NCBI GenBank assembly: GCA_000697665.1
Contig: KL197709.1
Location: 2,216,538-2,280,537, forward strand
DNA length: 64,000 bases
Source of the DNA: Jaapia argillacea MUCL 33604
Taxonomy: Eukaryota; Basidiomycota; Agaricomycetes; Jaapiales; Jaapiaceae
Direction of reading: 5' to 3'
Positions 37,301 through 55,768 of the stretch are shown here, in pieces. Each line of letters opens with the position of its first letter. Within the stretch, counting starts at the first letter, position 1. The notes under the pieces are model-generated. The model had not been told where the DNA came from and did not search any database. It saw only the letters and a list, made by a program, of their open reading frames with translations. The position numbers were made by a program, and so were the translations under genes.

Positions 37301-38949
37301 ATGTCTACCCCCGCCACCGAAAGCAAGAACATGCAGTACGGTGAGTCTCGTCCCCCATGGTGCTAACATCTCCTTTCTAAGTGTCTAACTCCTCGGGTGC
37401 GCTAGTTCGCCTGGGTAGCTCAGGTCTGAAAATATCCAAGATAATCCTTGGGACAATGCAATACGGAACTCCCACTTGGCAAGACTGGGTTCTTGAAGAA
37501 GAAGAGGCTCTGCAGCACATCAAGGCGGCGTACGATCTGGGTATTCAGACCTTCGACACTTCCAACGTTGGTGGTGAATTACCTTGCTTCTTTCGCGGAC
37601 ATAACTTCCCTTCGGCAGGTCTACTCTAATGGTCTCTCGGAGAAGATCCTAGGGAAGGCTATCAAACAATACAACCTGCCAAGAGAAGAAATAGTCGTCA
37701 TGACCAAGGTGATTCGGCGCACCATGGTTGTCTTCAACCACGAATTGACTCGTTCCAAGGTGTACTTCCCTGTCTCGACGACGGACCCTTCGAGCCAAGC
37801 TTATAAACACCCCAATCCTACCGAACTAGGATTCGTGAATCAGCATGGCTTAAGTCGGAAACATATATTCGACTCCATCAAGAAGAGCCTGGAGAGGTTG
37901 GGCTTGGAGTACCTCGATTTGTTGCAATGTTTGTGCCAAATGGTTGATGTTTTCATCTTCACTTACTAACTGTGTAACGTTGCCGCACCAGGCCATAGGT
38001 TTGACTACAACACGCCCATCGAAGAGACGGTCTGTGCAAATTCTCCTTGTCCCATTCTCTGCTCGATTAGAAACTAATTCATATACCTCTATAGATGCAA
38101 GCTCTTCACGATGTCGTGAAAGCTGGCTATGTGCGATACATAGGCATGAGCTCTTGCTGGGCGTATCAATGTATGTACTTCCACCCGTTCCTCCCTCCAT
38201 TATCTTACCATCACCACTGATCACAAAAATTATTATAGTTCATGCAATGCAAAACTATGCCACCACGAACAAGCTCACTCCGTTCATTTCTATGCAAAAC
38301 CAATATTCGTTAATTTACCGAGAGGAGGAGAGGGAGATGATGCCCACGCTCAAGGTAGTGTTCGCTTCTCTCGCTATTGATTCACTGACAGATGTTTCTC
38401 GGTTTGTTGTAGCTGTTCGGTGTTGGCGCTATCCCGTGGTCCTCGCTCGCTCGAGGTTTACTCTCGAGGCCTGTTCAAGGAGAGAAGACGAGGAGGGGTG
38501 AGACAGATCAGTAGGTTCTCCAGTTCTCAAAACCCTCGTAGTGACTCTCATGCTATCTTCAGGTACTTGAACAATAATTACTCCATCGAGGGTGCTACCG
38601 GGGAGATCATTAGTCGGTTTGTGGTTCGCTATTCAGATATCAAAGAAGTCGCTGAGTCCCATTCTACAGTGTGGAGGAGATCTCCAAGAAGAAAGGTGTC
38701 AGCATGGCTCAAGTCGCGATCGCTTGGCTTCTCTCAAAAGATGGTGCGCATCCTTGGTCGGCTCTCAATTTTCTACTGACCTCGCACGTCTTTTCCCAAC
38801 ACCTAGGTGTCTCCGCGCCAATTGTGGGTACGACTCGTCTCGACAACCTTCGAGACATCGTTGGTGCGATCCATGTCAGCCTCACCAACGAAGAGGTGCT
38901 GTACTTAGAGGATGCCTACGTGCCTCAGGCTATTAATGGGCATTCTTGA
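37301..38949 (+). CDS. Aldo-keto reductase, fungal aryl-alcohol dehydrogenase type
   Basis: NADPH-dependent reductase of the AKR superfamily. The ATG at 37301 starts a tiny exon (MSTPATESKNMQY) joined to VRLGSSGLKISKIILGTMQY. Further blocks are HIKAAYDLGIQTFDTSN, then VYSNGLSEKILGKAIKQYN (catalytic Tyr), GLSRKHIFDSIKKSLERLGL, HRFDYNTPIEET, VRYIGMSSCWAYQ, FISMQNQYSLIYREEEREMM and PWSSLARGLLSRP. The last exons are VEEISKKKGVSMAQVAIAWL and APIVGTTRLDNLRDIVGAIH. About nine exons, stop at 38949. Its 3' exons have been copied as fragments to 39.9 kb and 50.3-50.6 kb, so it is the source of, or a sibling to, island debris. Confidence 0.9.
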
Positions 38950-39074: not shown

Positions 39075-39652
39075 CTATTCAGTCGGTGGTGCAGAAGGTG
39101 GCGTATCGACCAACTCATCAGAATAAAGACCGTAATCCATGTCCATGTACCACCTCGGTGGTTTCTTGTATCCCAACATCTCCCCAATTACTTTCCATAT
39201 TTCGGCTGGAATTGGCTTCTTGGTTGGGTCGACCATGTCATAATTGGACTGGAAAACCCACAATACGCCCCCACCCACCTCCCACACTTGTTCGATGGGG
39301 GCTTTCACCTCAAACACTCCATCCAACTTCCTCCAGACATTGGACCAAGTTGGCAGCCACAGTATTTCACCGTTGGCGTCGCGCGCGACGAGGTTGTGTT
39401 CGGTCGCCAAGGGAAGGATAATCGTTTTGTTGAGGGGATAACCCTGATACATGATCGGAGGCCGGTTTGACTCCGATGGAATGAGCTCGGGAGGTAATTC
39501 TTTCAATGGTCTGAGGCGAAGCAAACGAGCCGAGTCCTGAGAATCATAACTGTATGAGTTCGATAGTGGTGGAGAGGCGTACGCGTACGGCGACCAACCT
39601 GTGGCGCCAACGGTTTATTCCTGCGTCTGCATCTAGTTCGGTCGAATGTTTC
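39075..39652 (-). CDS. Orphan family copy A (subfamily 1)
   Basis: First copy of the KNPPKWYLDM family. The main exon (39536-39075) begins DSARLLRLRPLKELPPELIP and ends with GYKKPPRWYMDMDYGLYS plus a short Ser/Pro tail. An upstream exon ending at 39599 (intron 39598-39537) reads RCRRRNKPLAPQ, which aligns with the first exon of other copies (RAxCxxRxGPxxPx), but I find no in-frame ATG there, so the 5' end is either altered or lies further upstream. Convergent with the aldo-keto reductase (stops 126 bp apart). It is the most diverged full-length copy. Function unknown. Confidence 0.6.
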
Positions 39653-39817
39653 ATGGACCCCATAATTTACAGGTTATTTTCAAGACCCGTACTGCGTAGC
39701 GGTCGTGTTTATGGCGTTCTTGTCACGCCGTCACGTGTGCGACACATCGCGACCGTGACAAATTTGGAACATCCACTGCACTGGATCACCGCGAACTGGC
39801 TCCTAACTGGATCAGCA

Positions 39818-39880
39818 AGGCTACCAAGCAACCAATTGACCGTGCTGTATGCAAGCCCACGGATAGAATCCTGTATCCCT
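39818..39880 (+). pseudogene. Orphan family first-exon remnant (subfamily 1)
   Basis: The reading KATKQPIDRAVCKP on the plus strand aligns with the first exon of copy F (MVAKQPIERAACKP). There is no start codon and no second exon. It runs directly into an aldo-keto reductase fragment at 39905, so this is a chimeric scrap left by duplication and deletion. Confidence 0.6.
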
Positions 39881-39904
39881 CGGTTCGCTGCTGTATCAAC
39901 CGAG

Positions 39905-40018
39905 GCCAACTCTGGGTATGACTTGCCTCAACAACCTTCGAGACATCGTTGGCGCGATCCATGTCAGTCTTCCAGACGAAGAAGTGCACTATTAGAGGAA
40001 GTCTACGTACCTTAGGTC
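39905..40018 (+). pseudogene. Aldo-keto reductase last-exon fragment 1
   Basis: About 115 bp matching 38818-38933 of the aldo-keto reductase gene closely at the DNA level (shared CAACCTTCGAGACATCGTTG and neighbouring bases). Small indels break the frame. It lies convergent to copy B exactly as the intact reductase lies convergent to copy A. Confidence 0.75.
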
Positions 40019-40200
40019 ATCGAACGGCAAAGCTAGGAGACTGTTCCTTCAGTGATGAGAGGTGGGTAAGCCTACATATGGGAGAATGGCGTTGAGTTCA
40101 AGTGAAGCTACGAAAAGTACATCCATTGGCCATGATGCGATCCACAAACACTACATGTACAGTTGATCATGAAGGAACATAAGGATACACATTCAGTAAA

Positions 40201-41067
40201 TTAACAGCCCCACACGGCGGTACCGTAGGGATCATCGTCAGGATAAATAGGACCCGGGTCACTACCACATATGTATGTCCGTCGAAAAACCTCTTTTTGC
40301 CTCTGAAATATGCAAACTTTTGACAGTAAATGACACTTTGTGGGCGAACCGGAGCATTTTTTGGCCTCTTGTTTTGACCAAAAACCTTCTATTTCACCAT
40401 TCTATGGCATCTAGCATCGGTACGAGGTGTTACCCTGGTGAATCGCGAAATAGCCCTCTGAAATATGCCTCTGAAATATGCTATCGGACGGATGGACATA
40501 TTCGGTAGTGACCCGGGTCCTGGATAAATGCCATAACCCATGTCGAGATACCACTTTGGCGGATTCTTATACCCTAGCCTCTTCCCAACCACTTGCCACA
40601 TTTCCGGAGGGACGGGTGTTTTGGTCGGGTCCACCATGTCGTAGTTGCTCTATACAACCCACAAGACACCCCCACGGACTTCCCACACCTGCGCGAGCTC
40701 AGCTCTCCGCGTGAACTCTCCATCCAACTTCCCCCAAGATTTCTCCCAGGTTGTCAGCCACAATATTTCACCCTGCTGGTCGCGATCCACTAGGTTATGC
40801 TCCGTGGCGAAAGGTAGGATTATAGTCTGGTTGGCGGGATACCCCTGCCACATGATGGGGGGTCGGTTTGAACCCGAAGGAATCAGCTCGGGAGGCAATT
40901 CTTTCAAAGGTCTGAGCTTCATTAATCGAGCAACGATCTGCAGAGCAACGCCATCAGTGAGAATGCGGTCCAGTGAACCGAAGGGGCAGAAGACAACGAA
41001 CTTGCGGGTCCAGTGGTCCGACCCTAGGCTTGCATGCGGTACGTTCAATCGGTTGTTTGGCACCCAT
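40201..41067 (-). pseudogene. Orphan family copy B (subfamily 1), with a stop and a transposon insertion
   Basis: The first exon starts at 41067 (MGAKQPIERTACKPRVGPLD then PQ), followed by an intron with GTTCGT donor and GCAG acceptor, then IVARLMKLRPLKELPPELIP. The frame has one TAG at about 40650 where copy F has CAG (WVVQSNYD), and the C-terminal codons are split by a 273-bp TIR element (40249-40521). Beyond the element the original end, DDDPYGTAVWGC and TAA at 40201, is still present. It is the inverted counterpart of copy F and is very similar to it, so inactivation looks recent. Confidence 0.75.
40249..40521. mobile_element. 273-bp MITE-like element with perfect 18-bp TIRs and 8-bp target duplication
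   Basis: The ends are AGGACCCGGGTCACTACC and its exact reverse complement; the similarity continues imperfectly for about 15 more bases. It is flanked by GGATAAAT at 40241-40248 and again at 40522-40529, and copy F has this octamer once at the matching place. No coding capacity. The interior holds three copies of CTCTGAAATATGC. The 8-bp target duplication suggests the hAT superfamily, although the tip is not the usual CAGGG/TAGGG. No second copy was noticed in this window. Confidence 0.8.
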
Positions 41068-41506
41068 TCAGAAAGTTGGAAGCTGTGTAACCAGAGCTTC
41101 ACAGTGAAGCCGTCTTCAAGGGGCACATCCTAAAAGACGCACCGAAATCCAACCGAAATCAAATATCATCATGCTTTCGCTTCCGCCGGCGCATCGACCC
41201 TTGAGGCATGTCACGGCTGCACGTGGACGACGCGACGCGACGGTCACAATGCAGTTGCAACGAGGCTTTCCCCATCACGCTTACGCCGTCACCCCTTCAT
41301 CGTTTCTCGTTTGCTGTCGTACCATGTATCATTGATACGTGGTAGCTTAAGTTGAGTCGGAGAAGGATTTCAAGGAAGGTGGTTGAGCAAGTGGTAGACT
41401 TGCACGATACAAAGGCTGCTGGGACTTAACTTTGCTGGCTTGGCAGTCTCCGGATTGCAACGGAGGATAATATTGAATCGAGAGTTGCAGAGACATGGAG
41501 AATACA
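41068..41506. repeat. Cassette spacer between copies B and C, inverted copy at 49.25-49.61 kb
   Basis: Parts of this stretch reappear reverse-complemented between copies E and F, for example the block containing GGTTGAGCAAGTGGTAGAC (about 41380-41400) against 49355-49375, and the CGTGGACGACGCGACGCGAC block (about 41222-41242) against 49523-49545. It is the promoter side of copy B and the 3' side of copy C. No separate gene was seen. Confidence 0.6.
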
Positions 41507-42128
41507 TCAACTGGAAGATGTCGAATTAGGCTCCCCGGTTGGACGGGTGGCTGAAATCGTCGAAGGTGCAGTGCGGCGGCGATGCAGAGGATAAATTCCC
41601 CTGCGCATGTCAAGATACCACTTGGGCGGATTTTTATAGCCAAGCGCCTTGCCAAATGCCTGCCGCACTTCCTGCGGCACAGGCTTCTTCGTGGGGTCAA
41701 CCATATCGTAGTTGTTCTGCACAACCCATAACGCGCCGCCAGAGACCTCCCACACCTGAATGAGTTCAGCCCCTACATCGAACTCGGTATCCAACTTGTT
41801 CCATATTTTCCCATGTCTGCAACCACTCTATTTTGCCATTGTCGTAACGATCGACAAGGTTGTGTTCTATGGCATAATCACGAACGATGGTTTCGTGCAT
41901 GGGATAGCCCTGGTGCATGAGGGGTGGATGATTGGTTTCAGAAGGGATTAACTCTGGGGGCAGGGTCGCCAGGGGTCGGAGCTTGCGTAACAGTTCATAG
42001 GCCTGAAATTGTGAGTAAACCAATGAGCAAAGAAGGGAATTGACTTGGGAACCCACCTCGGGACGCATAGGTCCTTCCCTGCGTACACATTTAGCTCGGT
42101 TCCATCGTTTGGGGAATGTACTGGTCAT
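41507..42128 (-). pseudogene. Orphan family copy C (subfamily 2), frameshifted
   Basis: The start at 42128 gives MTSTFPKRWNRAKCVRREGP, then a 54-bp intron, then AYELLRKLRPLATLPPELIP. After WLQTWEN, the equivalent of ATATTTGG reads ATATGG, a 2-bp loss that shifts the frame. The downstream frame (DTEFDVGAELIQVWEVSGGA to GYKNPPKWYLDMRRGIYP) is otherwise well kept. Together with B it forms a cassette that is the inverted copy of E-F. A single break in a well-kept sequence suggests recent loss, or an assembly error. Confidence 0.7.
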
Positions 42129-42693
42129 CACCGATAGTGTGAAGGAGAGAAAGAGAATTAACGCGTAGGAATCGAGTGTGGCTGCTAATAAATAGGACCA
42201 CAGTGTGGCAAGGAAGGTGGTTCAGCTGGTGGCGTCCAGCACGAGGAGACGGGAAGACGAGGATTTCGTTCAGGTAATGGGATCAAATGATCCGAGACTT
42301 CGACGACGGTGCCCTACTGGTACTTGCCGTGTCTGAGCATGCTTGCTCAGACTCGAAGCCAGACCCTACGATGCACCCAAGTCAATCACAAGGATGAATC
42401 GAGAGAAGAATTTGTGTGGGAGTGAAATGCGTACGCGTCTTTGGTCTCCACCAAGTCTCCACTGCACATCATAATGGTCAACCAGTATGGTTTGGATTCA
42501 GAGTCTAGTGAAGAAGTTGACCCCGACATATTCATGCCCTAATTCATCTGCAGACGGGCGGTGGATTCCCCGGAAGCCAATGGAAGTGTCGGATGAAGAT
42601 GCTGATGAATGCTACTGGTGTGTTTATAATAGCTATTGATTGGGACGCCCGCAGTCTCAAACCTCGAAGTAACTTCGAGCCCGAGCGACGATG
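42129..42693. other. Intergenic region with a short perfect hairpin
   Basis: Lies between copy C and the methyltransferase start. A perfect inverted repeat, GTCTGAGCA and TGCTCAGAC with a 4-base loop, is at 42331-42352. It could be a protein-binding palindrome or chance. No gene was recognised in these 565 bp. Confidence 0.35.
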
Positions 42694-43971
42694 AATAGCT
42701 TTGCACAATCAACATTTTCTGCAGAGAACTACAAGGCATATCGTCCAAGGGTGAGTCAATCATGCACACTATCGTCTCTGTAATCCCGCTCATGCCAATC
42801 GGCAGTATCCCGAACGATTATTTACTGATATCTTGGAATACCACGATTCCCATGGGGGCGGACGAGAATCTGCCCTTGATCTGGGATGTGGACCCGTTCG
42901 TGATCCACATTCTACGAGCACTATTGAACTCATTTCACCTTCTCCTCATCACAACAGGGGACGGTCACGGAACCACTCACTGCTTTCTTCGACAAAGTCG
43001 CGGGCGTGGACCCCAGCCAAGGCATGCTAGATGTGGCTTCAAAATCAGCCAAAACTTTGACATTGGAAGGAAAGTCATTGGAATATCTCGTGGGATCTGC
43101 CGAAGACATTCCAGCCTGTGATAGTTCCGTTGACTTGATCACATCGGGAACCTCTGGTGAGGAGGATTCGGTATACTAAACTCGCCAGGCACACTGATGT
43201 CGCGATATTCTGAATCGTGTAGCCCATTGGTTTCCGGCGAACTGGTGGACAAACGCGGCGCGAGTCCTTCGTCCTGGCGGAACCGTAGCTGTATTCGCGT
43301 ATGGAACGCCATTCGTGCGGTCCCACATGCACCCTGAAGCAGCGAAGATTACCAAAAAAGCCTGGAGCTGGAGGACTGCTCCGGAACTGGCCCCATACAT
43401 ACAGTGCGCTGATCTTTTTTGAGTTCTGACCCAAGCTTGACCTTGTGTAGGGAGAGCGGCAACATCGCAGAGCGCTTGTTCGATGATCTACCCCTGGCCG
43501 ATCCGACTAGTGGGGAGTGGGGACTTGTAGAACGGCGCGTTTGGAACAAGGACGGGGACGATGAGAACCAGGAGCCATACATGACGGCTCAGCCAACTCT
43601 ATCGAGCTGGGTGAGACTTTTATCATTATGATAGCCTCGAAGCTCACCAGTATTCAATGATGGATAAACAGAGAACTAGATTTGCTACGTGAGTATTCGT
43701 AGACGGGTCACCTATTTTGTTGCTAAGCAGGAACTTAAGCGTAAGCCCCGTATTCCGTTGGCGAGAAGCCAATCCGTGAGTATTGGGTTTCGCATTGGGG
43801 AGTAGCGCGGTTCTGTACTGACCCTCGTTCACTGTCAGTGACAAAGTGGGAACCGATGAGGACCCTCTGGAGAGATGTATTAAAGAGTTGAAGGAGATGA
43901 CTGAGTGGTCCGATGACCAGGTTATAGAGATTGGCATGTCGTTTACGCTGATAACGGTGAAGCGTCTGTAA
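42694..43971 (+). CDS. Crg1-like SAM-dependent methyltransferase (trans-aconitate methyltransferase type)
   Basis: Class I methyltransferase. Exon 1 starts with the ATG at about 42691-42694 (MNSFAQSTFSAENYKAYRPR) and joins in phase to YPERLFTDILEYHD. Motif I (ALDLGCGP then GTVTEPLTAFFDKVAGVDPS) is rebuilt across an intron. Later blocks are SLEYLVGSAEDIPACDSSVD, LITSGTSAHWF, AARVLRPGGTVAVFAYGTPF and FDDLPLADPTSGEWGLVERR. The last exon is DKVGTDEDPLERCIKELKEM and ends TLITVKRL at 43971. Two short exons near 43670-43740 are unresolved. The family methylates small carboxylic acids or drugs such as cantharidin in yeast. It sits inside the duplication island but is single-copy here. Confidence 0.82.
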
Positions 43972-44202
43972 CGTGTATAGTCCAATTGATTTGATGACTC
44001 GATGGGGATATACTGGGAGGAATGTGCATGAATGCATCGTAACGTAATCGAAAACAAGCATCCCGACTTCGTTCTCATGATCCATACATGAAGTGGCATT
44101 GAGCCGACCCATGGGCCGCCAAGTGTGTCTACAATACTAACAATGACAGTAAGAGTTGCTGCTCCCAACGGACAAAAACAGAATCTAACAAACGCACTAT
44201 CA

Positions 44203-46308
44203 TCACGATTCGAACTTCCCTCTCTCAACCCCATGGTTCTCAACGACCTTATCCATAGCATCCAACCAAATCTCAACTTCCGTCCCAGGCAACGCACCAC
44301 CCTTTCCCTTCTTCCTACCACCACCACCATTGCCGCTGGTCACTCCATTCACACCATGATGGTGATGCGTCGAAGGATTCGGACTAGTAAATCCGATTCC
44401 GATGCCAATGTACCGAGCATGTGCTAGGACTGGGAGACGGCGCAGAGATCGACCCGACATTCCTTGATCCTATATCATAGATCACAAGCAAAACAAATTG
44501 AACAAGAAACCGCGAAGAGTGGTGAACATGACATACCCGACATCTCTCAGCCAATCTCAATAGTCTCTGCCCAACCTCTGCACACCGGGCTTTCCGCTGA
44601 AGTTCCAACTTCACCTGCGCACTCACTTGATCTACTTCTATGGAAGCACTTGAGACATCAAACTTGGTTTCACCCAAGAGGGTGGTACTCTCCAGTCGGT
44701 CCAGTTTGGCCTCCAGGGGCGGCAAAGAAGCCGAGTGCTGTCGATTTACCTCTGCTTCTCTCAAAGATGGTACATCCTGTGCAGAGAATGAATTGAACCG
44801 AACCATCGAGCCAGAAGCGTACGAAGAGGAAACATACTATGGGCCTGACAATCCCCTTGTTGACCAACTCCACTAAGCAACTGCGTAGTATTTGATAAAC
44901 AGCTTCGGGGGGCGGGAGGTCGATGTATTGAATGATATCTGCTCTGTCGACGAATGCGGAGTCTAGTCAAGGCAGAAAAGGAGACGAAGTGAACAGTTAA
45001 TCACGAGGGTCAATATATGCGTATAATATCGACGAAGCTGTACATACCGATGGCTTTTGCTAAATTACTTGTGGACATTACGAGTACATTCTTGCGATGC
45101 TTCAGTTTGTCAAGCTGGGTCAGGAGCGCGTTTACCACCTAAATTTAAGGGGTCAAAAGTTAGCACCACCGCCCGTGTGTATAAAATGATAAACAAAGGG
45201 AACCCACCCGTAACGCGTCAGAAGGTTCTGTGCCAGCCATCGCACCAGCCCGAGCAGCCGTCAGCGACTCCACCTCATCGATGAGCACGACGACGAAAGT
45301 CTCTTCATCATCGACCATCTCCATCACGCTCGCAAATAATTTTTGCACGAGTTTTCCCGATTCTGAGAACCAGCGGGAGAAGAGAGAATGGGAGTTGATT
45401 TCTAGGAGGCGTGTATGGGGATAGCTGAGATTCGAGTCAAGAGAAAGAGGCGCATATAGTCCAGTTCCGATGGTGCAATGGAGCATATAGTCAGGTTTAA
45501 TGCATAAATAATGAGTAGGATCATATTTCGTGTAAGTATGAAAAGAAATTGAGTAGCGGCAGCTACTTACCGGTGTGAAAGGCGAATAGAAAGTTTCTGA
45601 GCAAGGGCGCGGCATAGCGAGGTTTTACCTGTGCCAGGAGGTCCATGCAGGAGGACCACTCTGTTCCATGAGACGACATTGACTGAAAGGAAACTATGAC
45701 GTTAGTAACCAGCACGTTTCATCGAGCATAAACTCACAGTCGACATCGGCATCACTAAAAACCACAGTCGCATAGATATAATCCAGAAGCTTCAGCTTGA
45801 TATCATCCGGGAAAACCAGGCTGTCCCAAAGGCCCTCCCAATCCCTGCTAGGCAGCTCACAAACGCTCGCTGCCATAACTTCCTCACCTTCGCTTCCCCT
45901 CCCGCTACTATACTCCTCAAACGCATCTGAGCCACTCGGCTGGTACACGTGTATCTGCAGAGCGCATTGCTCGATGGGGAGCGAAGGTGAGAGCGCCAGG
46001 GAAGGAGAGTTCGATTCTGATGCGATGATTTGCTCGATGGAGGACGCTAGTACCGAATTTGTTTCCCAGCCTGAGAGGGTGGAGGGGAGGAAGATACGAC
46101 TGAGAGAGGACGTCAGGTAGGAGTGGACCAGGTTTCGGATTGTGTCGAAACGTGCGGTTGCAGATTGGGAGACTCGGACTTCAACTGAACGACAAATTAG
46201 CAGTATTTTCGAGTGAGGTAGCGGTGAGAACGTACTGTGCACCGGCCACATGGTAGCGGGCTGCTCAGCTTTTACAGCGGCCATAGTTATGTCGGACACA
46301 GAGGACAT
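44203..46308 (-). CDS. PCH2: Pachytene checkpoint AAA+ ATPase Pch2/TRIP13
   Basis: Remodels HORMA-domain proteins in meiosis and the spindle checkpoint. The ATG at 46308 gives [20 protein letters not shown]. The N-terminal adaptor region ends with [20 protein letters not shown] and [20 protein letters not shown]. Walker A is [15 protein letters not shown] (about 45630), followed by [20 protein letters not shown] (substrate loop). Walker B is [11 protein letters not shown] and sensor 1 is near [31 protein letters not shown] and [13 protein letters not shown] then [12 protein letters not shown] complete the lid. Six or so exons, stop at 44203. A Gly/His-rich insert in the C-terminal part ([18 protein letters not shown]) is unusual. 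Confidence 0.93.
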
Positions 46309-46507
46309 TTGAAGGATCACCAGCTAGCAGAGGGTGGATGGCTGGTGGCACGCGACTGCAACGCGTCCTGCAATCGATCGAAAATTGGTCAAACAACGCG
46401 TAAACAAGCCAGCCACGTGTCCTCATTTACAAAGCAGCCTTCAACTTGTCAAGTTGCACGGTTACCATCCAGTTCGACAAAGTCAACACATCTATTATCT
46501 ATTTGCC

Positions 46508-47163
46508 ATGGCCGACCCAGGAAAATCTGTGGAATGTGCAGATTGTCAAACAAATCCACCCGATTCGACATCTGGACTCACCGACAAACCTGTCGAGCGT
46601 CCCGCCGACACAGCCGCATCAATCGTTCCGAAACCTCATGATCCTCTCGATGCTTCGACATTTGTACCCCCTTCCCCCATTCCTGGCCCTAGCATAACGA
46701 TTGAATTCTGTGACAGAGTGAGTTTCCTCCTTTCCTGCTACTTCATTGAAACAATATTTCATCCCCGCAGTGTCGATGGTACGTCTGTCGCCACACAGGT
46801 TTGCTACGAAAGGCCTAAGTTTCTGTACTTCCAGGTTGCACCGCGCAACGTGGGTATCAACAGAACTCTTCCTAACCTTCCCACCTCCCACCATCCAATC
46901 CATCTCACTCGTCCCTCGAAACGCCGAAGAGACAGCGGGAAGGTTCAGGGTATGGCTCTTCACGCCTCAAGAAGACCCCGTCTTGATGTGGGACAGAAAG
47001 ATCGAAAGTGGTTTCCCAGAGCTGAAAGTACTCGTGAGTGTCTTGGGTGAACCTGACCTTAGTTAAACCCTCTCTAAAAAACGGATGGTTGTCGATCCAG
47101 AAACAACGCATACGGGATCGTCTCCAACCTGGAAAGTCGCTGGGTCACTCCGATAAGAAGTGA
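46508..47163 (+). CDS. Selenoprotein-W-like (Rdx/SelWTH) protein with CxxC
   Basis: Thioredoxin-like Rdx family, non-selenocysteine form. Exons join in frame: ...SITIEFCDR, then CRW, then LHRATWVSTELFLTFPPPTI, then after an intron ending TCCAG the tail KQRIRDRLQPGKSLGHSDKK. The redox motif is CDRC at the end of exon 1 and start of exon 2. GRFRVWLFTPQEDPVLMWDR and GFPELKVLKQ are classic family blocks. The first 50 or so residues are a Pro-rich, probably disordered extension. The start at 46508 is 199 bp from the divergent PCH2 start. Confidence 0.87.
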
Positions 47164-47659
47164 CAATTGGAGAGTTTGCCGATCTCTTGAGATATCGCTA
47201 CACGACTGGCGGTGTACAGAATTCGAAAGAAGTTGATCCCCTTGTACTTGTATCCGCCCATTGTCGACACAGCTGAATGGATCCCTCATGCAGCCTAGAT
47301 CGATCCATATCTGTTTCCGCTTCCAAACTCGCGCCAACAAGAACGGGAATCCATGCAGATCTCCATCAGATGAGAGACGTTGAACCGCTCGTTCTGTAAC
47401 TTGACTAGCACTGTCGCTGGCTATAAGTGGCACAGACGATAGTTGACATGATGCTAAGTATGTGTACTGTGGTTATGAGACCTCGAGATAAGTGCATACG
47501 CTTTCCACCCGTCTGCTGGGCTTCACTTCTCGTTGACCGGTGCGTTTCGAATTTGAAGGACAAGGTCGGGGTGGCTCCCCCAAGGCCGAAGCTTCAGCAA
47601 TCGAGCAATGACCTGTACAACAGCATGGAACATGGCTGTCATTCGATGAGGCCTGTCGA
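47164..47659 (-). pseudogene. Mostly empty stretch with a subfamily 1 second-exon scrap
   Basis: At 47581-47615 on the minus strand an acceptor-like CAG is followed by VIARLLKLRPW, the start of the second exon of subfamily 1 genes (IVARLLNLRPL in copy F). The reading then diverges. Its place just downstream of copy D mirrors B downstream of C, so it is the leftover of the second gene of a third cassette. The rest of this stretch, next to the Rdx gene, shows nothing. Confidence 0.55.
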
Positions 47660-48241
47660 TTAGAATCCTCCGCTGGACGAGTAGATTTTTTTGAAGTTGC
47701 AGTGGCGGCGACGCTGAGGATAGATCCCGAAGCGCATGTCGAGATACCACTTGGGGCGGATTTTTATAACCGGGGGTCTTCCCGGGTGCCTGCCGCGCTT
47801 CTTGCGGCACAGGCTTCGTAGGGTCCAGCAAGTCATAATTGGACTGCACGACCTATAACGCACCGCCATAAACCTCCCATACCTGAATGAGTTCAGCCCC
47901 GACGTTGAAATCGCTATCCAGCTTCTTCCAAACGTTTCCCCAGGTCTCCAACCACTCTATTTCCCTGTTGTCGTCACGGTCAACGAGGTCGTTTTCGGTG
48001 GCGTATTCGAGGATCATATCTTCGTGGATGGGATAACCCCGATGCATAAGGGGTGGATGGTTGGTTTCGGAAGGGATTAGCTTGGGGGGGAGGTTTGACA
48101 GAGTGCGGAGGTCTAGTAACATCTCGATATCCTGAGATTCTGAGTAAGTCAACTGTCAAAGAGAACACTTAATTGACCTGGGTACCCACCTCGGGATGCA
48201 TAGGTCCATTTGGCTCGGTCGAGCCGTCGTTTGGTGGCCAT
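47660..48241 (-). pseudogene. Orphan family copy D (subfamily 2), degenerate
   Basis: The start is at 48241 (MATKRRLDRAKW). Compared with copy I, exon 1 lacks about 13 bp. In exon 2 the codon after GGAL is TAG instead of TGG, one Lys codon is missing in DPTK-PVPQ, and one extra C in the KNPPK codons shifts the frame before the last motif. The middle part, ELIPSETNHPPLMHRGYPIH to VGAELIQVWEV, is still readable. At least three disabling changes make this the most decayed long copy. Confidence 0.75.
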
Positions 48242-48620
48242 GTTGGTCAGTGACGGTGTATAAGAAATACTCGGAGAATAATGTGGTACGGTTGGCGGCG
48301 CCGTCAAGAATTGCGGCGACGATAGTGAATTGGAGGAGGAGAAAGGAGGAGGGGATTGGGAGAAGCGTGACGACGGCCACGATCTGTCACACTATCATGT
48401 GTAAGCCACCATTGCAATTTAACAATGTTTTTATGGAGAACGAACGAAAAATCAACCGCTCGTCGGCAACCTTTGAGGCTGTCATTCTGCTGAGTGACAT
48501 CTCCAGCATACATAGGTTTGGAAGGCTTTCAGAGAAATTGGACTTCATGGTGCTTCGTCAACGCTCCAGAGCTTCGACGTTCAAGTTGACCATCTTGCTC
48601 TCCCCTTCACCCTGTCAGCG
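48242..48620. repeat. Divergent promoter block between copies D and E, repeated upstream of copy G
   Basis: About 380 bp shared with 50640-51025 as a direct repeat. Matching stretches include GGTTGGCGGC, GTCAAGAATTGCGGCGA, the ATCTGTCACAC and TGCAATTTAACAATGTTTT blocks, CTTTCAGAGAAATTGGACTTCAT and the start-proximal TTCACCC-GTCAGCGATG. In copy G a CACGTG lies in this block where copy E has CATGTG. It probably carries the promoter of subfamily 2 genes. Confidence 0.7.
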
Positions 48621-49247
48621 ATGACCAGCACGTTCCCCAAACGATTGAACCGAGCTAAATGTGTACGCAGGGAAGGGCCTATGCTTCCCGAGGTGGGTTC
48701 CTAGGTCAATTCCCTTCTTTGCTCGTTGGTTTACTCGCAATTTCAGGCCTACGAACTGTTACGCAAGCTCCGACCCCTGGCGACCCTGCCCCCAGAGCTG
48801 ATCCCTTCCGAAACCAACCATCCGCCCCTCATGCACCAAGGTTATCCCATGTACAAAACCATCGTTCGCGATTATGCCATCTCACACAACCTTATCCACC
48901 GTTATGCCAATGGCAAAATAGAGTGGTTGCAGACCTAAGAAAATATTTGGAACAAGTTGGATACCGAGTTTGACGTGGGGGCTGAACTCATTCAGGTGTG
49001 GGGGGTGTCTGGTGGCGTGTTATGGGTTGTGCAGAGCAACTACGATATGGTCGACCCTATGAAGAAGCCCGTGCCGCAGGAAGTGTGGCAGGCATTTGGG
49101 AAGACTCTTGGCTATAAAAATCCACCCAAGTGGTATCTCGACATGCGCTGGGGTATCTATCCTCGACGTCGCCGTCGCACTGCAACATCGAAGAAATCAG
49201 CCACCCGTCCAACTGGAGAGCCTAATTCGACGCCTTCTTCCAGTTGA
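48621..49247 (+). pseudogene. Orphan family copy E (subfamily 2), one nonsense codon
   Basis: Exon 1 is MTSTFPKRLNRAKCVRREGP then MLPE. The 54-bp intron is followed by AYELLRKLRPLATLPPELIP. The codon after WLQT is TAA where copies C, G and I have TGG. The rest (NIWNKLDTEFDVGAELIQVW to GYKNPPKWYLDMRWGIYPRR) is open to the stop at 49247. It is nearly identical to copies C and I over long stretches, so the loss is recent. It heads the plus-strand cassette E-F. Confidence 0.75.
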
Positions 49248-49611
49248 TGTATTCACTATATCTCTGCGACTCTTGATTCACAATTATCCTTTGTTGCTAT
49301 CCAGAGACCATCACTCCAACAAAGTTAAGTCCCAACAGCATTTGCATTGTGTAAGTCTACGACTTGCTCAAGCACCTTACTTGAAATGCTTCTCCAGTCG
49401 AACTCAAAGTGCCAGATATCAGTGATACATTACGATGGTGAAAAAGAAATCGAGAAGGGGTGACTGGTGGAAACGTGATGGGTTGCAGGAAGTCGCTGCG
49501 ATCTTTGTTTGCATTGTGACCGTCGCGTCGCGTCGTCCACGTGAAATCGTGACATGTCAAGGGATGATTGGTTTTAGTAGCGTCCCTCTGTAACCGCTCG
49601 TAACCTGCTGT
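49248..49611. repeat. Cassette spacer between copies E and F
   Basis: Inverted counterpart of 41068-41506. It contains the 3' side of copy E and the promoter side of copy F, including the GACCGTCGCGTCGCGTCGTC block. No gene was seen within it. Confidence 0.6.
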
Positions 49612-50197
49612 ATGGTCGCCAAACAACCGATTGAACGTGCTGCATGCAAGCCTAGGATCGGACCACTGGATCCGCAAGTTCGTCGTCTTCTGCGCCTTCG
49701 GTTCACTGGACCACATTCTCACTGACGGCGTTGTTTTGCAGATCGTTGCTCGATTATTGAACCTCAGACCTTTGAAAGCACTGCCTCCCGAGCTGATTCC
49801 TTCGGGTTCAAACCGACCCCCCATCATGTGGCAGGGGTATCCCGTCAACCAGACTATAATCCTACCTTTCGCAACAGAGCATAACCTAGTGGATCGCGAC
49901 GAGCAGGGTGAAATATTGTGGCTGTCGACCTGGGAGAAGTCTTGGGAAATGTTGGATGGGGAGTTCGAGCGGAGAGCTGAGCTCGCGCAGGTGTGGGAAG
50001 TCGATGGGGGCGTCTTGTGGGTTGTACAGAGCAACTACAACATGGTGGACCCGACCAAAACACCCGTTCCTCCGGAAATGTGGCAAGTGGTTGGGAAGAG
50101 GCTAGGGTATAAGAATCCGCCAAAGTGGTATCTCGACATGGGTTACGGCATTTATCCTGACGATGACCCCTACGGTACCGCCGTGTGGGGCTGTTAG
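49612..50197 (+). CDS. Orphan family copy F (subfamily 1), apparently intact
   Basis: Two exons, 49612-49677 and 49742-50197 (64-bp intron, GTTCGT donor, TTGCAG acceptor), give 173 residues. Exon 1 reads MVAKQPIERAACKPRIGPLD then PQ. Exon 2 opens IVARLLNLRPLKALPPELIP. Hallmarks: GSNRPPIMWQGYP, FATEHNLVDRDEQGEILWL, AQVWEV, GGVLWVVQSNYNMVDPTKTP, MWQVVGKRLGYKNPPKWYLD and a short end, DDDPYGTAVWGC. No signal peptide or membrane segment; Trp-rich and mildly charged. No known domain recognised. It is the best reference for subfamily 1 and shows the intact sequence at the transposon site of copy B. Confidence 0.75.
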
Positions 50198-50334
50198 TTC
50201 TCTCATCCTGTATCCTTACGTTCCTGTGCGATCAGCTGTATATATCGTGTTTGTGGACCGCATGTTGGCCAACGGGTATTCTCCCCTACCGCATTTCCAG
50301 GAACGGGTTTTCCACTCAAAAATGCCCATTAATA

Positions 50335-50610
50335 GCCTGAGGCATATAGGCATACTCTAAGTTGTGCACTTCTTCGTCTGTCAGGCTGACATCGATTGGT
50401 GCGGAGACACCTGGATGTTGGAAACAATGAGCGAGGTCAGTAAATGATCGATGATGGCTGGAGAGCCGATCAAGGATGCGCACCACCTTTCAAAAGAAGC
50501 CAAGCGATTCCGACTTGAGCCATGGTGACTCCTTTCTTCTTGGAGATCTATTATACACTGTAGAATGGGATATGCAAGGACTCAGCAACTCCTTTGATAT
50601 CTGAATCATG
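50335..50610 (-). pseudogene. Aldo-keto reductase 3' fragment 2
   Basis: On the minus strand this follows the last exons of the reductase gene: TTCAGATATCAAAG (intron sequence), GATCTCCAAGAAGAAAGG, ATGGCTCAAGTCG, then the C-terminal codons up to CTCAGGCTATTAATGGGCAT. Because intron sequence is present this is a DNA duplication and not a retrocopy. It is rearranged by internal deletions and is convergent with copy F, as the intact reductase is with copy A. Confidence 0.75.
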
Positions 50611-51025
50611 CCTCGAGCCTCAGTGCAAACCTCAAGCGAGGGAGGATCACTGATTTGGGGACCATGTTGGTCAGCGTGGGCGTATGAGAAAGACTCGGCG
50701 GACGATGCCGTTTGGTTGGCGGCGTCGTCAAGAATTGCGGCGAGGATGGGGAATCGGAGGAGCAGGTTCGAGAAGCGTGATGACAGCCACGATCTGTCAC
50801 ACAATCACGTGCGAGCCACGGCTGCAATTTAACAATGTTTTGTGGAAATAACAAATAGAAATTCAACCCCTCGTCCGTGACTGCTTAGTGGCATCTCCAG
50901 CATACTAGTCGGACAGGACCAAGGCCACAGCTTTCAGAGAAATTGGACTTCATCGTGCTTTGGCGACACTCCAGTGCTTAGACATTTGAGTTGTCTATCG
51001 TGCTCTCCTCTTCACCCCGTCAGCG
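50611..51025. repeat. Upstream block of copy G, direct copy of the D-E promoter block
   Basis: From about 50640 on it matches 48226-48620 (see that entry). Left of 50640 the sequence joins the aldo-keto reductase fragment, so the junction near 50610-50640 marks a duplication breakpoint. No gene inside. Confidence 0.65.
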
Positions 51026-51751
51026 ATGACTAGCACGGCCCCCAAACAATTGAATCGAGCGAAATGCGTACGCAGGGAAGGACCTATGTGTTCCGAGGTG
51101 GGTTCCCAAGATAATTCTCGCCTCTGGTCGTTAGTTTACTCGGAATGTCAGGCCTATGAACTATTGCGCAACCTCCGACCTCTCGTGAACCTTCCCCCGA
51201 GCCTAATCCCTTCTGAAACCAACCATCCGCCTCTCATGCACCGCGGTTATCCCGTCCACGAAACCATCGTTCGCCCCTATGCCACCGAACACAACCTCCT
51301 CGAACACGATGACACGGGAGAAATCAATTGGTTCCGGACGTGGGGAAAGATATGGAACAAGTTAGATACCGAGTTCGATGTAGGGGTGGAACTCATTCAG
51401 GTGTGGGAGGTCCCTGGCGGCGCGTTGTGGGCTGTGCAGAACAACTACGATATGATTGACCCTACTAAGAAGCCCGTGCCGCAGGAAGTATGGCAGGCGT
51501 TTGGGAAGGCACTTGGCTATAAAAATCCGCCCAAGTGGTACCTCGACATGCGTTACGGTATCTATCGACACAGCCGCCCTCAGGCTGCTGCTGCTGCTGC
51601 TTCAAAGGAATACGCCCGCCCGACCGAGGAGTCGAACTTGGGACGGTTGGGACACCCGGGTCCGGCACAATGCTCCGCCACAGCTCGTGGTGTTGTGGGG
51701 ACACTCCGGCTTTTAGAAGTTCAAGTTGACCATCTTGTCCCCCCGTCAGCG
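51026..51751 (+). CDS. Orphan family copy G (subfamily 2), frame open into copy H
   Basis: Exon 1 is MTSTAPKQLNRAKCVRREGP then MCSE. The 54-bp intron (GTGGGT to TGTCAG) is divisible by three and stop-free. Exon 2 reads AYELLRNLRPLVNLPPSLIP to GYKNPPKWYLDMRYGIYRHS. After an Ala run (Gln-Ala7) and PTEES the sequence changes to what is the 5' flank of other copies, and no stop occurs before the ATG of copy H at 51752, which is in the same frame. The family stop and the intergenic spacer have thus been lost, and G may be translated as one protein with H. Confidence 0.65.
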
Positions 51752-52388
51752 ATGATCAGCACGGCCCCCAAACGATCTAATCGAGCTAGATGCGTACGCA
51801 GGGAAGGACCTATGTGTCCCGAGGTGAGCTCCCGGGACCATTATTCTCCTTGTCGTTGTTCACTCGAAATTTTAGGCCTATGCACTATTGCGTAGCCTTC
51901 GACCTCTACCGGACCTTCCCCCAGACCTAATCCCTTCCGAAACTAACCAACCGCCTCTCATGCACCAAGGGTATCCCATGCACGAAACCGTCGTTCGCCC
52001 GTATGCCGTCGAACATAATCTCCTCGAACATGATGACAAGGGCAAAATAGATTGGTTCCCGACCTGGGGAAATATATGGAAGAAGTTGGATACCAATTTC
52101 GACGTCGGGGCTGAACTCATTCAGGTTTGGGAGGTCCCTGGCGGCGCGTTATGGGTTGTGCAGAACAACTATGACATGGTTAACCCTACGAAAAAACCCG
52201 TGCCGCAGGAAGTGTGGCAGGCGATTGGGAAGGCACTTGGCTACAAAAACCCGCCCAAGTGGTATCTCGACATGCGCTGGGGCTTCTATCCCCAGCGTCG
52301 CATTCGCACTGCAGCTTTGAAGCAAGCACTGGCCATCTGTCCAGCCGAGAGGCGGTCGACTGATAATCGGCGACTTTCAGTGGATTAA
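51752..52388 (+). CDS. Orphan family copy H (subfamily 2), intact or second half of a G-H fusion
   Basis: Exon 1 starts at 51752 (MISTAPKRSNRARCVRREGP then MCPE). The 52-bp intron (GTGAGC to TTTTAG) is followed by AYALLRSLRPLPDLPPDLIP, NQPPLMHQGYPMHETVVRPY, TWGNIWKKLDTNFDVGAELI, GGALWVVQNNYDMVNPTKKP and GYKNPPKWYLDMRWGFYPQR, with the stop at 52386-52388. Only about 45 bp of the usual promoter-proximal sequence remains upstream (TTCAAGTTGACCATCTTG to GTCAGCG). If used alone it encodes about 195 residues; with G about 410 after splicing. Confidence 0.7.
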
Positions 52389-53026
52389 TCGCAGGTCGTC
52401 GTGTATTGTGATTCATTACTATATTTTGTTGCTATCCAGAGACCGTCATGACTCCTGCAAAGTTGTATCGATCTAAAAGGCGCCACAATACTATATTGAA
52501 GCCCTACTCACTTCTGTTCCGACCCGGGAGGGCCAGGAGCTTTCAAGTTCGTCAGGTTCACCGTTCTGCACTACCCACAAGGCACCTCCAGGAACCTCCC
52601 ACACCTGTGTGATCCCTGTTCTTCGCTCGAATCCCCCATCCAATGAGTTCACCCAGACAGCTTAGGCGATTCCTTCAGAGGTCTAATCGGATGGAAAGGA
52701 ATCGGGTTCTGGAGGCGAGAGAAAAGGCACGGTATGTCACGGAATCATGTGCGAGGCTTGTATGACCACGCTTGACAACGCAACGACGAGTCCCGTAGTC
52801 TCTCGTAGTCTGCAGAAAAGGACATGATCACAGAACGCCCAGAAACAGTACTAGTTGCAAGTTCAGACCGGCCACTTCCCATCTTTTCCAGTTGATAAAT
52901 ACACTTCTCTTGTTGAGCTGTCGATGCGTCGACCTAAGTACATTATTACATGGTCGATGCACACAGAAGATTGGGAGTACATTGGGTGTGAGGTGAAAAA
53001 TCGTGACCATACAGAAAAGCCGTGTC
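52389..53026 (-). pseudogene. Spacer with orphan family remnant J (subfamily 1 type)
   Basis: On the minus strand at about 52695-52556 the readings IRPLKESP and then LDGGFERRTGITQVWEVPGG, ALWVVQN can be recognised, with the segment between them deleted. Orientation is opposite to G-H. The other sequence up to the acidic-protein stop at 53027 shows no gene. Confidence 0.6.
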
Positions 53027-54220
53027 TTACCACCAAGGGTCCATCATGCCATTCAAGTGACTAACCTTGCACAGCGCATAGTCCACCAACCTGATGAATT
53101 CCGGATGAAAATCGTCGGGGAGAGCAACTTGAGGGAAAGGGAAGGGGGCAGGATTGGGGGACGGATTCTCATGGTCTTGAGAACCATTTTTGTCGCTACC
53201 CTCAACATCACTCGAACCTCCCTCCTTTTCACTGTCATCTGAGCAACTCTCTGAATCCCCGGCTTGTGTCTCACCCTCCACCTCCCCTTCCTCACCGCGA
53301 TCCCTGACGCTGCCGTCGGCCGAACCATCTTCACCGTCACCGTCGTCTTCCTCCTGCTCAGCATACTCGAACCCTCCATTTTCGTCATTGGCCCCCCAAA
53401 CTCCCCCCCGGCCATCGTACTCAAATCGTTCATCCTCATCCTCATCCTCCGCCTCATCCTCCTCATCAGACTCCTCATCAGACTCCCAACGATTCTGCTC
53501 GAGGATGATGTTTCCGTCTTCGTCAAGCCTCGGAGAATCAGAATTTGCCACATCCGACTCGGATAATTCATCGTCCTCAGGCAATTCATCGCCCTCAGCA
53601 TTCATTAATGGGAGGACACCTTCAACATGGACAATGGGCTTCGAGGTGAGGCCGGAGGGTGTCTTCCGGTCAACACGGTGGTTGGGCAGAGCCGAGGTCG
53701 AGGCAGATTTGTACTCTCGCATTGTCCAGTATGCCCCGGCGACCATGATGACGCAGGCAACACCATCTCGATGCCCATCCCAGAATTGTTCGAAGATAAA
53801 TTTGGCTTGGACAGTAACCTGACGGTCTATTTCGCTGCGCTTTCGACCAAGAACGATTGCGGCGGCTCTCCTGGCGACAAAGTTGAACGGGGTAGAAATT
53901 TCTACCTCCAAACGTTTGATCTCCATCCAGAGGGGCAGTCGACGGTGAACGGGATCACCCGGTTGGCCGAACAAATGGCCGACTAAACCGAAGTCGGGGT
54001 ATTTGTATTGGGGCTTTTTTTCCAGGAGGCGCTTGATAGGAAGTTGAGGAGCCGGCATCAACGAACATTGGAATGGAGAACGTAGAGCGAAGGGGACAAG
54101 AGCCCAACCCCATGGTTGATAGAGGTAGCCCTCGATCGTGCAGTCGCAGCAAGCGTATCGCAACGACTCGTAGAGGTCACGAAAGTATCGTTCTTTCCCG
54201 AGAGTCAGTACCCCAGCCAT
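53027..54220 (-). CDS. Acidic protein of unknown function, 397 aa
   Basis: A single open frame from the ATG at 54220. The N-terminal half looks globular: GKERYFRDLYESLRYACCDC, then YQPWGWALVPFALRSPFQCS, KYPDFGLVGHLFGQPGDPVH and RRLPLWMEIKRLEVEISTPF, then AKFIFEQFWDGHRDGVACVI. The C-terminal half is an acidic run of Glu/Asp/Ser (about residues 220-350). It ends HLNGMMDPWW; the TGGTGGTAAG at the end could also be a splice donor, so the C-terminus is uncertain. The DFGLVGHL and RRLPLWMEIK pieces look conserved, but I do not recognise the family. It lies between copies J and I. Confidence 0.65.
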   Translation of the reverse strand: MAGVLTLGKERYFRDLYESLRYACCDCTIEGYLYQPWGWALVPFALRSPFQCSLMPAPQLPIKRLLEKKPQYKYPDFGLVGHLFGQPGDPVHRRLPLWMEIKRLEVEISTPFNFVARRAAAIVLGRKRSEIDRQVTVQAKFIFEQFWDGHRDGVACVIMVAGAYWTMREYKSASTSALPNHRVDRKTPSGLTSKPIVHVEGVLPLMNAEGDELPEDDELSESDVANSDSPRLDEDGNIILEQNRWESDEESDEEDEAEDEDEDERFEYDGRGGVWGANDENGGFEYAEQEEDDGDGEDGSADGSVRDRGEEGEVEGETQAGDSESCSDDSEKEGGSSDVEGSDKNGSQDHENPSPNPAPFPFPQVALPDDFHPEFIRLVDYALCKVSHLNGMMDPWW

Positions 54221-54784
54221 CGTCTACCAAGGGCATGGCGGTAAGCGCGAGAAAGTAGGTATATCAAGGAATCACTCACTGGGTCGGTGATGGCACAAGA
54301 CAGCAGAGCAAGGCCCAGGGTTCAAACCGACAAGTTATAAACAGAATCTTTGTGGAACTGGTCGGGAAAGCCACAGCGTCCACAGGTAATTACATATCCA
54401 GAGACACGGACAAAGGCACTATGGTAGGGTCGAAGATTCCAGCGACGCTTGGGCCAAGCGCAGGGCTGAACAATGGTGGCCAAAGTTCCGATCGAGCCAC
54501 AACAAAGCCTGGAGATGTGAAAGCGAGTAATTGCAAATAAATTGAGCTACAGGTTAGTTGTGAAAGATAGATGGATAGATAGGTAGATACGCGGAGAATC
54601 ACAATGGTGGTTGCCTTACTTCGCCACAGGGCAAAAGCCCGGTGTGGAGGCGGAGTTGAAAGCTCGGGACGGTAGGCCACAACTTGCGGACAAATTGAGT
54701 TTTGTGGTTGTGTGACGCTCGAGTACTTAACAAACGCTCAAGGCTTCAAGTTCACCATCTTGTTCTCCTCTTCATCTGTCAGCA
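54221..54784. other. Intergenic region with a GATA-type simple repeat
   Basis: A GATAGATGGATAGATAGGTAGATA-like imperfect tetranucleotide tract lies at about 54566-54590. The last 60 bp before copy I resemble the conserved promoter-proximal block of subfamily 2 (CTTCAAGTTCACCATCTTG to GTCAGCAATG). No gene was seen. Confidence 0.5.
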
Positions 54785-55417
54785 ATGACCAGCACATTCC
54801 CCAAACGATTGAACCGAGCTAAATGTGTACGCAGGGAAGGACCTATGCGTCCCGAGGTAGGTTCCCAGGTCAATTCCCTTCTTTGCTCTTTGGCTTACTC
54901 GCAATTTCAGGCCTATGAACTGTTACGCAAGCTCCGACCCTTGGCGACCCTGCCCCCAGAGTTGATCCCTTCCGAAACCAATCATCCACCCCTCATGCAC
55001 CAGGGTTATCCCATGCACGAAACCATCGTTCGCGATTATGCCATCGCGCACAACCTTATCCACCGTTATGCCAATGGCAAAATAGAGTGGTTGCAGACCT
55101 GGGAAAATATTTGGAACAAGTTGGATACCGAGTTCGACGTGGGGGCTGAACTCATTCAGGTGTGGGAGGTGTCTGGCGGCGCGTTATGGGTTGTACAGAA
55201 CAACTACGATATGGTTGACCCCACGAAGAAGCCCGTGGCACAGGAAGTGTGGCAGGCGTTTGGGAAGGCGCTTGGCTATAAAAAGCCGCCCAAGTGGTAT
55301 CTCGACATGCGCTGGGGTATCTATCCTCGGCGTCGCCGTCCTCAGGCTGCTGCTTCGAGGGAACCCGCCCGCCCAGCCGAGGAGTTGACTGATAACCGGC
55401 CACCTTCAGCGGATTAA
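54785..55417 (+). CDS. Orphan family copy I (subfamily 2), apparently intact
   Basis: Two exons around a 54-bp intron (GTAGGT to TTTCAG) that is itself stop-free and in frame; spliced length is 192 residues. Exon 1 is MTSTFPKRLNRAKCVRREGP then MRPE. Exon 2 reads AYELLRKLRPLATLPPELIP, NHPPLMHQGYPMHETIVRDY, WENIWNKLDTEFDVGAELIQ, GGALWVVQNNYDMVDPTKKP, EVWQAFGKALGYKKPPKWYL, then MRWGIYPRR and a low-complexity tail ending PPSAD. No signal peptide or membrane segment. It stands alone, not in a cassette, and is the best reference for subfamily 2. Function unknown. Confidence 0.78.
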   Translation: MTSTFPKRLNRAKCVRREGPMRPEVGSQVNSLLCSLAYSQFQAYELLRKLRPLATLPPELIPSETNHPPLMHQGYPMHETIVRDYAIAHNLIHRYANGKIEWLQTWENIWNKLDTEFDVGAELIQVWEVSGGALWVVQNNYDMVDPTKKPVAQEVWQAFGKALGYKKPPKWYLDMRWGIYPRRRRPQAAASREPARPAEELTDNRPPSAD

Positions 55418-55768
55418 TCGCGGGTCGTCGTGTGTCATGTTTTATTGCTATCTTTTGTTGCTATCCAGAGACCTCGTCATTCATGAAAGGTTGTATAATT
55501 ATGAAAAGCGCTATAATATGTATATCGGACCACATTGCTGCCCCACTTCCAACTTGAACCGCCTGCCACATTTTTGGCGGACGGTGCTTCAACGGTCGTG
55601 ACAGCGTGACGGCAGTGATACCAAGGTAGGTCCAGGTGGTACTGTACCTCCAAGCCTTTAGCGGTCTTCTTCCAACATCAACACCGCCAGTGGAACTCTC
55701 CATTTCGCATATCTTGAACAGTACTGGCATCACATCAAATATACTATCAACAAGCCTAGAATATTGAC
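55418..55768. other. Spacer with a possible family scrap
   Basis: On the minus strand near 55600-55560 the reading RPPKMWQAVQVG resembles VPPEMWQVVGKRLG of subfamily 1. This is a weak match over 12 residues. Otherwise it is the MYND gene promoter region. The island seems to end here. Confidence 0.3.

What the first reader, a model, noticed from the sequence alone, without database searches (positions are those of the whole stretch)
39075..55600. Amplified orphan gene family: at least nine copies plus remnants in 16.5 kb
Ten positions (A-I plus scraps at 39.8, 47.6, 52.6 and possibly 55.6 kb) encode versions of a 170-190 aa Trp-rich protein with fixed landmarks: LRPL--LPPELIPS, PP-M-QGYP, ATEHNLVD, QVWEV-GG-LWVVQ-NYDMVDPTK and GYKNPPKWYLDM. 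Two subfamilies share the same two-exon layout and an exon 1 pattern RAxCxxRxGPxxPx. Only F, G, H and I look functional. I know of no described family with these motifs. A birth-and-death array of a small soluble cytosolic-type protein in an otherwise conserved region suggests selection for copy number or variability, as seen for self-recognition or stress genes, but the role is unknown.
Basis: partly seen in the sequence, partly recalled or inferred. Interest (0 to 1): 0.8.

Follow-up and report, generated by a model that had tools for sequence, protein, structure and literature searches.

The report
Amplified unnamed fungal gene array
A fungal chromosome carries nine copies, about half of them broken, of a small protein of unknown role that matched no described family in the searches made; a distant relative sits elsewhere in the same genome, so it is a real but ordinary-looking local gene-family expansion.

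Summary
Nine copies (A-I) of a two-exon gene lie at 39.0-55.4 kb of the window, in two subfamilies (A,B,F and C,D,E,G,H,I). Scraps at 39.8 and 52.6 kb are firm, 47.6 kb likely, 55.6 kb weak. F and I are open as separate genes. G has no stop of its own and reads in frame into H, so G+H may be one two-domain gene (418 aa). B, C, D and E carry stops, frame changes or a hAT-like MITE; A has an open exon 2 but no in-frame start was found. Selection between copies is purifying (dN/dS 0.15-0.32 in the nine of 21 pairs with dS below 1.4), against the suggested selection for variability. It is not a pure orphan: a 23-25% identical paralogue with the same predicted phase-0 intron lies on contig C18. No family, PDB chain, prokaryotic or viral contig matched in the searches run; a weak Pfam ULD_2 (ubiquitin-like) hit missed its cut-off and failed a profile test. 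Two AlphaFold runs were unusable (pLDDT 46, 41). Most likely a small intracellular fungal protein amplified by inverted and tandem duplication with birth-and-death turnover; biochemical role undetermined.

The parts
39078..39536 (-). Copy A, exon 2, open; exon-1 homologue about 39599-39646 without in-frame ATG
40203..41067 (-). Copy B: exon 1 41002-41067, exon 2 from 40937; one premature stop, and a MITE splits the 3' end
40249..40521 (.). hAT-like MITE of 273 bp in copy B: 18-bp perfect terminal inverted repeats, 8-bp target duplication; further copies on C55 and C15
41510..42128 (-). Copy C: exon 1 42057-42128; exon 2 with a frameshift
47693..48242 (-). Copy D: exon 1 with a deletion, exon 2 with a premature stop and further decay
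48621..49247 (+). Copy E: exon 1 48621-48692, exon 2 from 48747; one premature stop
49612..50197 (+). Copy F: open, exons 49612-49677 and 49742-50197, 173 aa, calculated pI 4.9
51026..51751 (+). Copy G: exons 51026-51097 and 51152 onward; no stop before copy H
51752..52388 (+). Copy H: exons 51752-51823 and 51876-52388; own ATG, but also in frame with G (spliced G+H open reading frame 418 aa)
54785..55417 (+). Copy I: open, exons 54785-54856 and 54911-55417, 192 aa, calculated pI 9.3
39824..39878 (+). Scrap: F-type exon 1
   Evidence: 0 of 200 shuffles
47582..47622 (-). Scrap: F-type intron end and start of exon 2
   Evidence: 2 of 200 shuffles
52563..52658 (-). Scrap: F-type middle of exon 2
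   Evidence: 0 of 200 shuffles
55557..55584 (-). Possible scrap, weak
   Evidence: 6 of 200 shuffles
37381..38949 (+). Aldo/keto reductase gene beside copy A; remnants of its 3' end lie beside B (39905-40016 +) and F (50313-50606 -)
40116..42150 (.). Left arm (B, C) of an inverted duplication of about 2 kb; right arm 48599-50282 (E, F)

Best explanation
Shown: the array is a local expansion of one two-exon gene for a small protein without a hit in known families. It was copied both in tandem and as inverted blocks, together with pieces of a neighbouring aldo/keto reductase gene. Some copies are decaying, while the open copies bear the mark of purifying selection. A distant paralogue with the same predicted intron exists elsewhere in the genome, so the gene is older than the array. 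Inferred: unequal recombination between repeats drives gain, loss and the G+H join; the proteins are intracellular, not enzymes of a known class, and act as small binding or adaptor modules. The acidic F type and basic I type would be two functional versions kept in parallel, with the remaining copies giving dosage or simply being in transit to loss.
For: Copies and scraps. Inverted and tandem blocks with co-copied reductase ends. Decay. Purifying selection: dN/dS G-H 0.20, G-I 0.21, H-I 0.19, E-I 0.15, A-F 0.15, B-F 0.32; one-sided Fisher p from 3e-17 to 0.015 for these six pairs. Distant paralogue: genome search E 0.14 with copy A and 0.012 in the reverse search, pairwise BLASTP E 3e-6, hhalign E 1.5e-6 with probability 90%, same predicted phase-0 intron. 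No known family in the searches run.
Against: No transcript, protein or population data were available. The adaptor role rests only on the absence of enzyme-family hits; no usable structure was obtained. The genome-wide E-values of the C18 link are borderline by themselves; the pairwise tests and the intron carry it. The G+H join may be chance: 661 of 3170 overlapping local noncoding windows of the linker's length are open (21%), before a further factor of about 3 for frame, and H keeps its own start codon. Low dN/dS partly reflects selection before copies began to decay: B-F and E-I each include a broken copy.
Confidence: 0.6

Rival explanations
1. A diverged member of the fungal ULD_2 ubiquitin-like domain family, acting as a ubiquitin-fold interaction module.
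For: In 4 of 4 copies scanned (unspliced open frames of F, G, H, I), Pfam reports only ULD_2 (E 0.011-0.09, 13.4-16.3 bits). The insignificant hhalign alignment places NYD on YE and W on W. True ULD_2 genes exist in this genome on C39, C8 and C11.
Against: All four scores are below the curated cut-off of 24.5 bits, as is the one match in this cluster in the genome search (copy I, 17.5 bits). hhalign against five ULD_2 sequences of this genome gives probability 0.1-0.2% and E 0.25-0.59. The C18 paralogue has no Pfam hit up to E 10. The low-confidence models do not show a beta-grasp order, but are too weak to count.
Confidence: 0.2
2. A recognition or conflict locus (allorecognition, or a poison/antidote-like driver) kept multi-copy because diversity is favoured.
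For: Multi-copy array with several pseudogenes, inverted repeats and a possible gene join.
Against: dN/dS 0.15-0.32 in the nine pairs with dS below 1.4; significant constraint in the six pairs tested; 7 of 7 windows over G, H and I have pN below pS; Pfam listed no NLR, HET or toxin domain in the four copies scanned. No strain comparison was possible.
Confidence: 0.1
3. Neutral by-product: an unstable repeat-rich segment duplicates whatever lies there, and copy number has no function beyond one ancestral F-type and one I-type gene.
For: A reductase gene end was copied too and survives there only as short remnants. Of nine copies, B, C, D and E are broken and A lacks an in-frame start. The C18-type gene also left a relic on C48.
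Against: G, H and I all stay open, at dS about 0.5-0.6 from one another, with strong constraint.
Confidence: 0.3

Closest known systems
C18 paralogue of the same genome (G000:C18:478664-479131, minus strand, exon 2; unnamed)
   Same: PL-x-L, PP, G(Y/W)P, NYD and KWYLD landmarks in the same order; same predicted phase-0 intron position
   Different: 23-25% identity to the five open exon-2 copies A, F, G, H, I; a 14-residue insertion in the middle; longer predicted exon 1 (35 codons) without the RAxCxxRxGP pattern; one full-length match in the genome
Pfam PF22893 ULD_2 (ubiquitin-like domain)
   Same: Weak similarity over about 50 residues that include NYD...W
   Different: Below the curated cut-off; not supported by profile comparison with ULD_2 sequences of the same genome
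Lineage-specific tandem families under birth-and-death evolution (general kind, recalled)
   Same: Tandem and inverted copies, relics, shared flanks, constraint on open copies
   Different: This protein family has no name in the libraries searched

Membership tests
Pfam PF22893 ULD_2 | Score over the curated cut-off of 24.5 bits | tested here: not met
   13.4-16.3 bits in 4 of 4 copies scanned; 17.5 bits for copy I in the genome search; C18 paralogue without any hit up to E 10
Pfam PF22893 ULD_2 | Profile similarity to accepted members | tested here: not met
   hhalign probability 0.1 and 0.2% against five ULD_2 sequences of this genome
Pfam PF22893 ULD_2 | Beta-grasp (ubiquitin) fold | tested here: inconclusive
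Fungal NLR / HET recognition genes | NACHT/NB-ARC or HET domain | tested here: not met
   Only ULD_2 listed up to E 10 in the 4 copies scanned; the program drops most matches above about 0.1
Fungal NLR / HET recognition genes | Diversifying selection between copies | tested here: not met
   dN/dS 0.15-0.32 in nine pairs with dS below 1.4; six pairs tested by Fisher
Fungal NLR / HET recognition genes | Polymorphism between strains of one species | not testable with these tools
   one genome held, no relatives
Birth-and-death tandem gene family | Clustered paralogues with both open and broken copies | tested here: met
Birth-and-death tandem gene family | Copy number varies between related genomes | not testable with these tools
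   no related fungal genomes held

The most novel reading that the evidence does not exclude
An undescribed basidiomycete protein family with its own fold. An ancestral gene related to the C18 type gave rise to a cluster that keeps an acidic F-type and a basic I-type protein, plus a newly joined two-domain G+H protein, as a cytosolic interaction set tuned by copy number.
Probability: 0.15. Interest if true: 0.55.

Novelty: new member of a known kind. Interest (0 to 1): 0.33.

Why it matters
It documents an unnamed fungal protein family with a local expansion, a distant paralogue that supports its two-exon ancestry, and a possible gene join in progress. It would gain weight if the fold were new or if copy number tracked ecology. 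As it stands, lineage-specific expansions of unnamed families are, from general knowledge, common in fungi.

Tried and rejected
Tried without result: NCBIfam with four copies (a prokaryote library), PHROGs with two proteins (best E 0.054), Pfam with the C18 protein, PDB by sequence with two proteins and two profiles (best E 0.25), GTDB and IMG/VR scans with copy I exon 2 (18 and 3 pattern matches, none confirmed; close relatives only), AlphaFold with A2 and with A3, Foldseek with the weak first model (37 matches at E up to 10, none at E up to 0.001, not interpretable). Literature: four motif strings gave 0 papers; 'lineage-specific gene family' with Agaricomycetes, tandem duplication and orphan genes gave 0; 'ubiquitin-like domain' with ULD and basidiomycete gave 1 paper, unrelated by its listing. 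Searches were seen as listings and abstract starts only; no paper was opened.

Rejected: ubiquitin-like membership; diversifying selection; a scrap at 50.63 kb (36 of 200 shuffles). In one search the F and H queries were cut one base off, giving wrong-frame translations; their rows were not used, nor were copy I rows with E above 0.1; hold the corrected exons. In one search the B exon-1 translation was likewise one base off and B was read. Copies C and D were left out of the dN/dS table because of frame changes, but are in the DNA tree. Of the 21 pairs, 4 have saturated dS (printed inf), 8 have dS 1.49-3.23 (dN/dS 0.09-0.18) and 9 have dS below 1.4 (dN/dS 0.15-0.32); I rely on the last nine.
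Full report
Setting. The window is G000:C1:2216538-2280537 of a 43,724,918-base genome in 95 contigs. I take it as fungal from its short predicted introns and gene content (inference), and as basidiomycete because DUF6534, which I recall as a family of that group, has eight matches in the genome, seven of them counted over its cut-off. No call names the species.

Observation. Nine copies of one gene lie between 39,078 and 55,417. Searches of the whole genome with copy F give 12 matches and with copy I 13 matches, each of them inside this cluster. By predicted splice sites, seven copies have a short exon 1 (22 codons in B and F, 24 in C, E, G, H and I), a phase-0 intron of 52-64 bases and a long exon 2 (B by eye). 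F (173 aa) and I (192 aa) are open. G runs in frame into the first exon of H, and a spliced G+H reading frame of 418 aa is open. This could be chance: 21% of overlapping local noncoding windows of the linker's length are open (661 of 3170), and a third of joins would be in frame. B and E have a premature stop, C a frameshift, D a deletion in exon 1, a stop and further decay. A has an open exon 2, and an exon-1 homologue in which I found no in-frame ATG.

Scraps. Against 200 dinucleotide shuffles each, the pieces at 39.8 and 52.6 kb stand out (0 of 200), 47.6 kb is likely (2 of 200), and 55.56 kb is weak (6 of 200); a candidate at 50.63 kb fails (36 of 200) and two control stretches give 131 and 172 of 200.

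Architecture. The unrooted DNA tree of exon 2 splits the copies into A,(B,F) and D, (G,H), (C,E,I). B and C on the minus strand mirror E and F on the plus strand as blocks of about 2 kb (40,116-42,150 and 48,599-50,282; 93% and 85% identity in the two longest pieces). Between the arms Pfam finds a methyltransferase, a TRIP13/PCH2-type and an Rdx-family gene. The 3' end of an aldo/keto reductase gene (37.4-38.95 kb) lies beside A; remnants of it lie beside B (39.9 kb) and F (50.3-50.6 kb). The stretch upstream of E recurs upstream of G (48,230-49,161 against 50,654-51,566, 78%). Copy B was also hit by a 273-bp element with 18-bp perfect inverted ends and an 8-bp target duplication, a hAT-like MITE by those marks (recalled criteria); a query of 272 of its bases matches over its whole length on C55 (96%) and C15 (91%).

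Selection. dN/dS over exon 2 is 0.20 (G-H), 0.21 (G-I), 0.19 (H-I), 0.26 (G-E and H-E), 0.15 (A-B, A-F and E-I) and 0.32 (B-F): nine of 21 pairs, those with dS below 1.4. Four further pairs are saturated and eight have dS of 1.49-3.23 with dN/dS 0.09-0.18. Pairs with B or E include a broken copy. One-sided Fisher p for fewer replacement than silent changes runs from 3e-17 (A-F) to 0.015 (B-F) in the six pairs tested (G-H, G-I, H-I, E-I, B-F, A-F). In 7 of 7 windows of up to 20 codons over G, H and I, pN is below pS (0.03-0.22 against 0.29-0.52). This is constraint, not diversification.

Relatives. Copy A as query gives 12 matches, one of them outside the cluster: C18, E 0.14. The C18 open frame (156 aa) keeps the landmarks in order, aligns with copy A at BLASTP E 3e-6 (a single comparison) and with the family profile at hhalign E 1.5e-6, probability 90%, and has a predicted 60-base intron at the same place and phase. 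As query it gives 9 matches: itself, seven in this cluster (best E 0.012) and a short relic on C48. So the family is older than the array. No relative was found in NCBIfam, the PDB, GTDB contigs or IMG/VR by the searches run; the contig scans reach close relatives only. Other fungal genomes could not be searched.

Fold. Pfam lists only ULD_2, in 4 of 4 copies scanned, below its cut-off. The genome has true ULD_2 genes on C39, C8 and C11, but the profile comparison with five ULD_2 sequences from these contigs fails and the C18 paralogue has no hit. AlphaFold gave pLDDT 46 and 41, too low to use.

Mechanism. Shown: amplification in inverted and tandem blocks, decay, constraint, an older paralogue. 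Inferred: unequal recombination as the engine, cytosolic location (from reading the sequence only; no localisation program was run), a binding or adaptor role, and specialisation between the acidic F type (pI 4.9) and the basic I type (pI 9.3; both calculated from predicted splice forms).

Verdict. Real, unnamed in the libraries searched, and of a known evolutionary kind.

Noticed in passing
40249-40521: A 273-bp hAT-like MITE with 18-bp perfect inverted ends and 8-bp target duplication sits in copy B; two further copies matching over the whole 272-base query are on C55 and C15.
   Followed up: yes
42700-47100: Methyltransferase, TRIP13/PCH2-type and Rdx-family genes lie between the inverted arms of the array.
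   Followed up: partly
37381-38949; 39905-40016; 50313-50606: An aldo/keto reductase gene beside copy A and two remnants of its 3' end beside B and F. Whether the gene itself is intact was not tested.
   Followed up: partly
L030, L031 (C39); L032, L033 (C8); L034, L035 (C11): ULD_2 domains over the cut-off lie in pairs about 2.5 to 14.5 kb apart on three contigs; L033 has an internal stop in the domain.
   Followed up: partly
L055 1572-1625 (C48): Short relic of the C18-type gene.
   Followed up: partly
53030-54223: A 398-codon open frame with long acidic stretches, minus strand, between H and I; no Pfam hit up to E 0.01.
   Followed up: no
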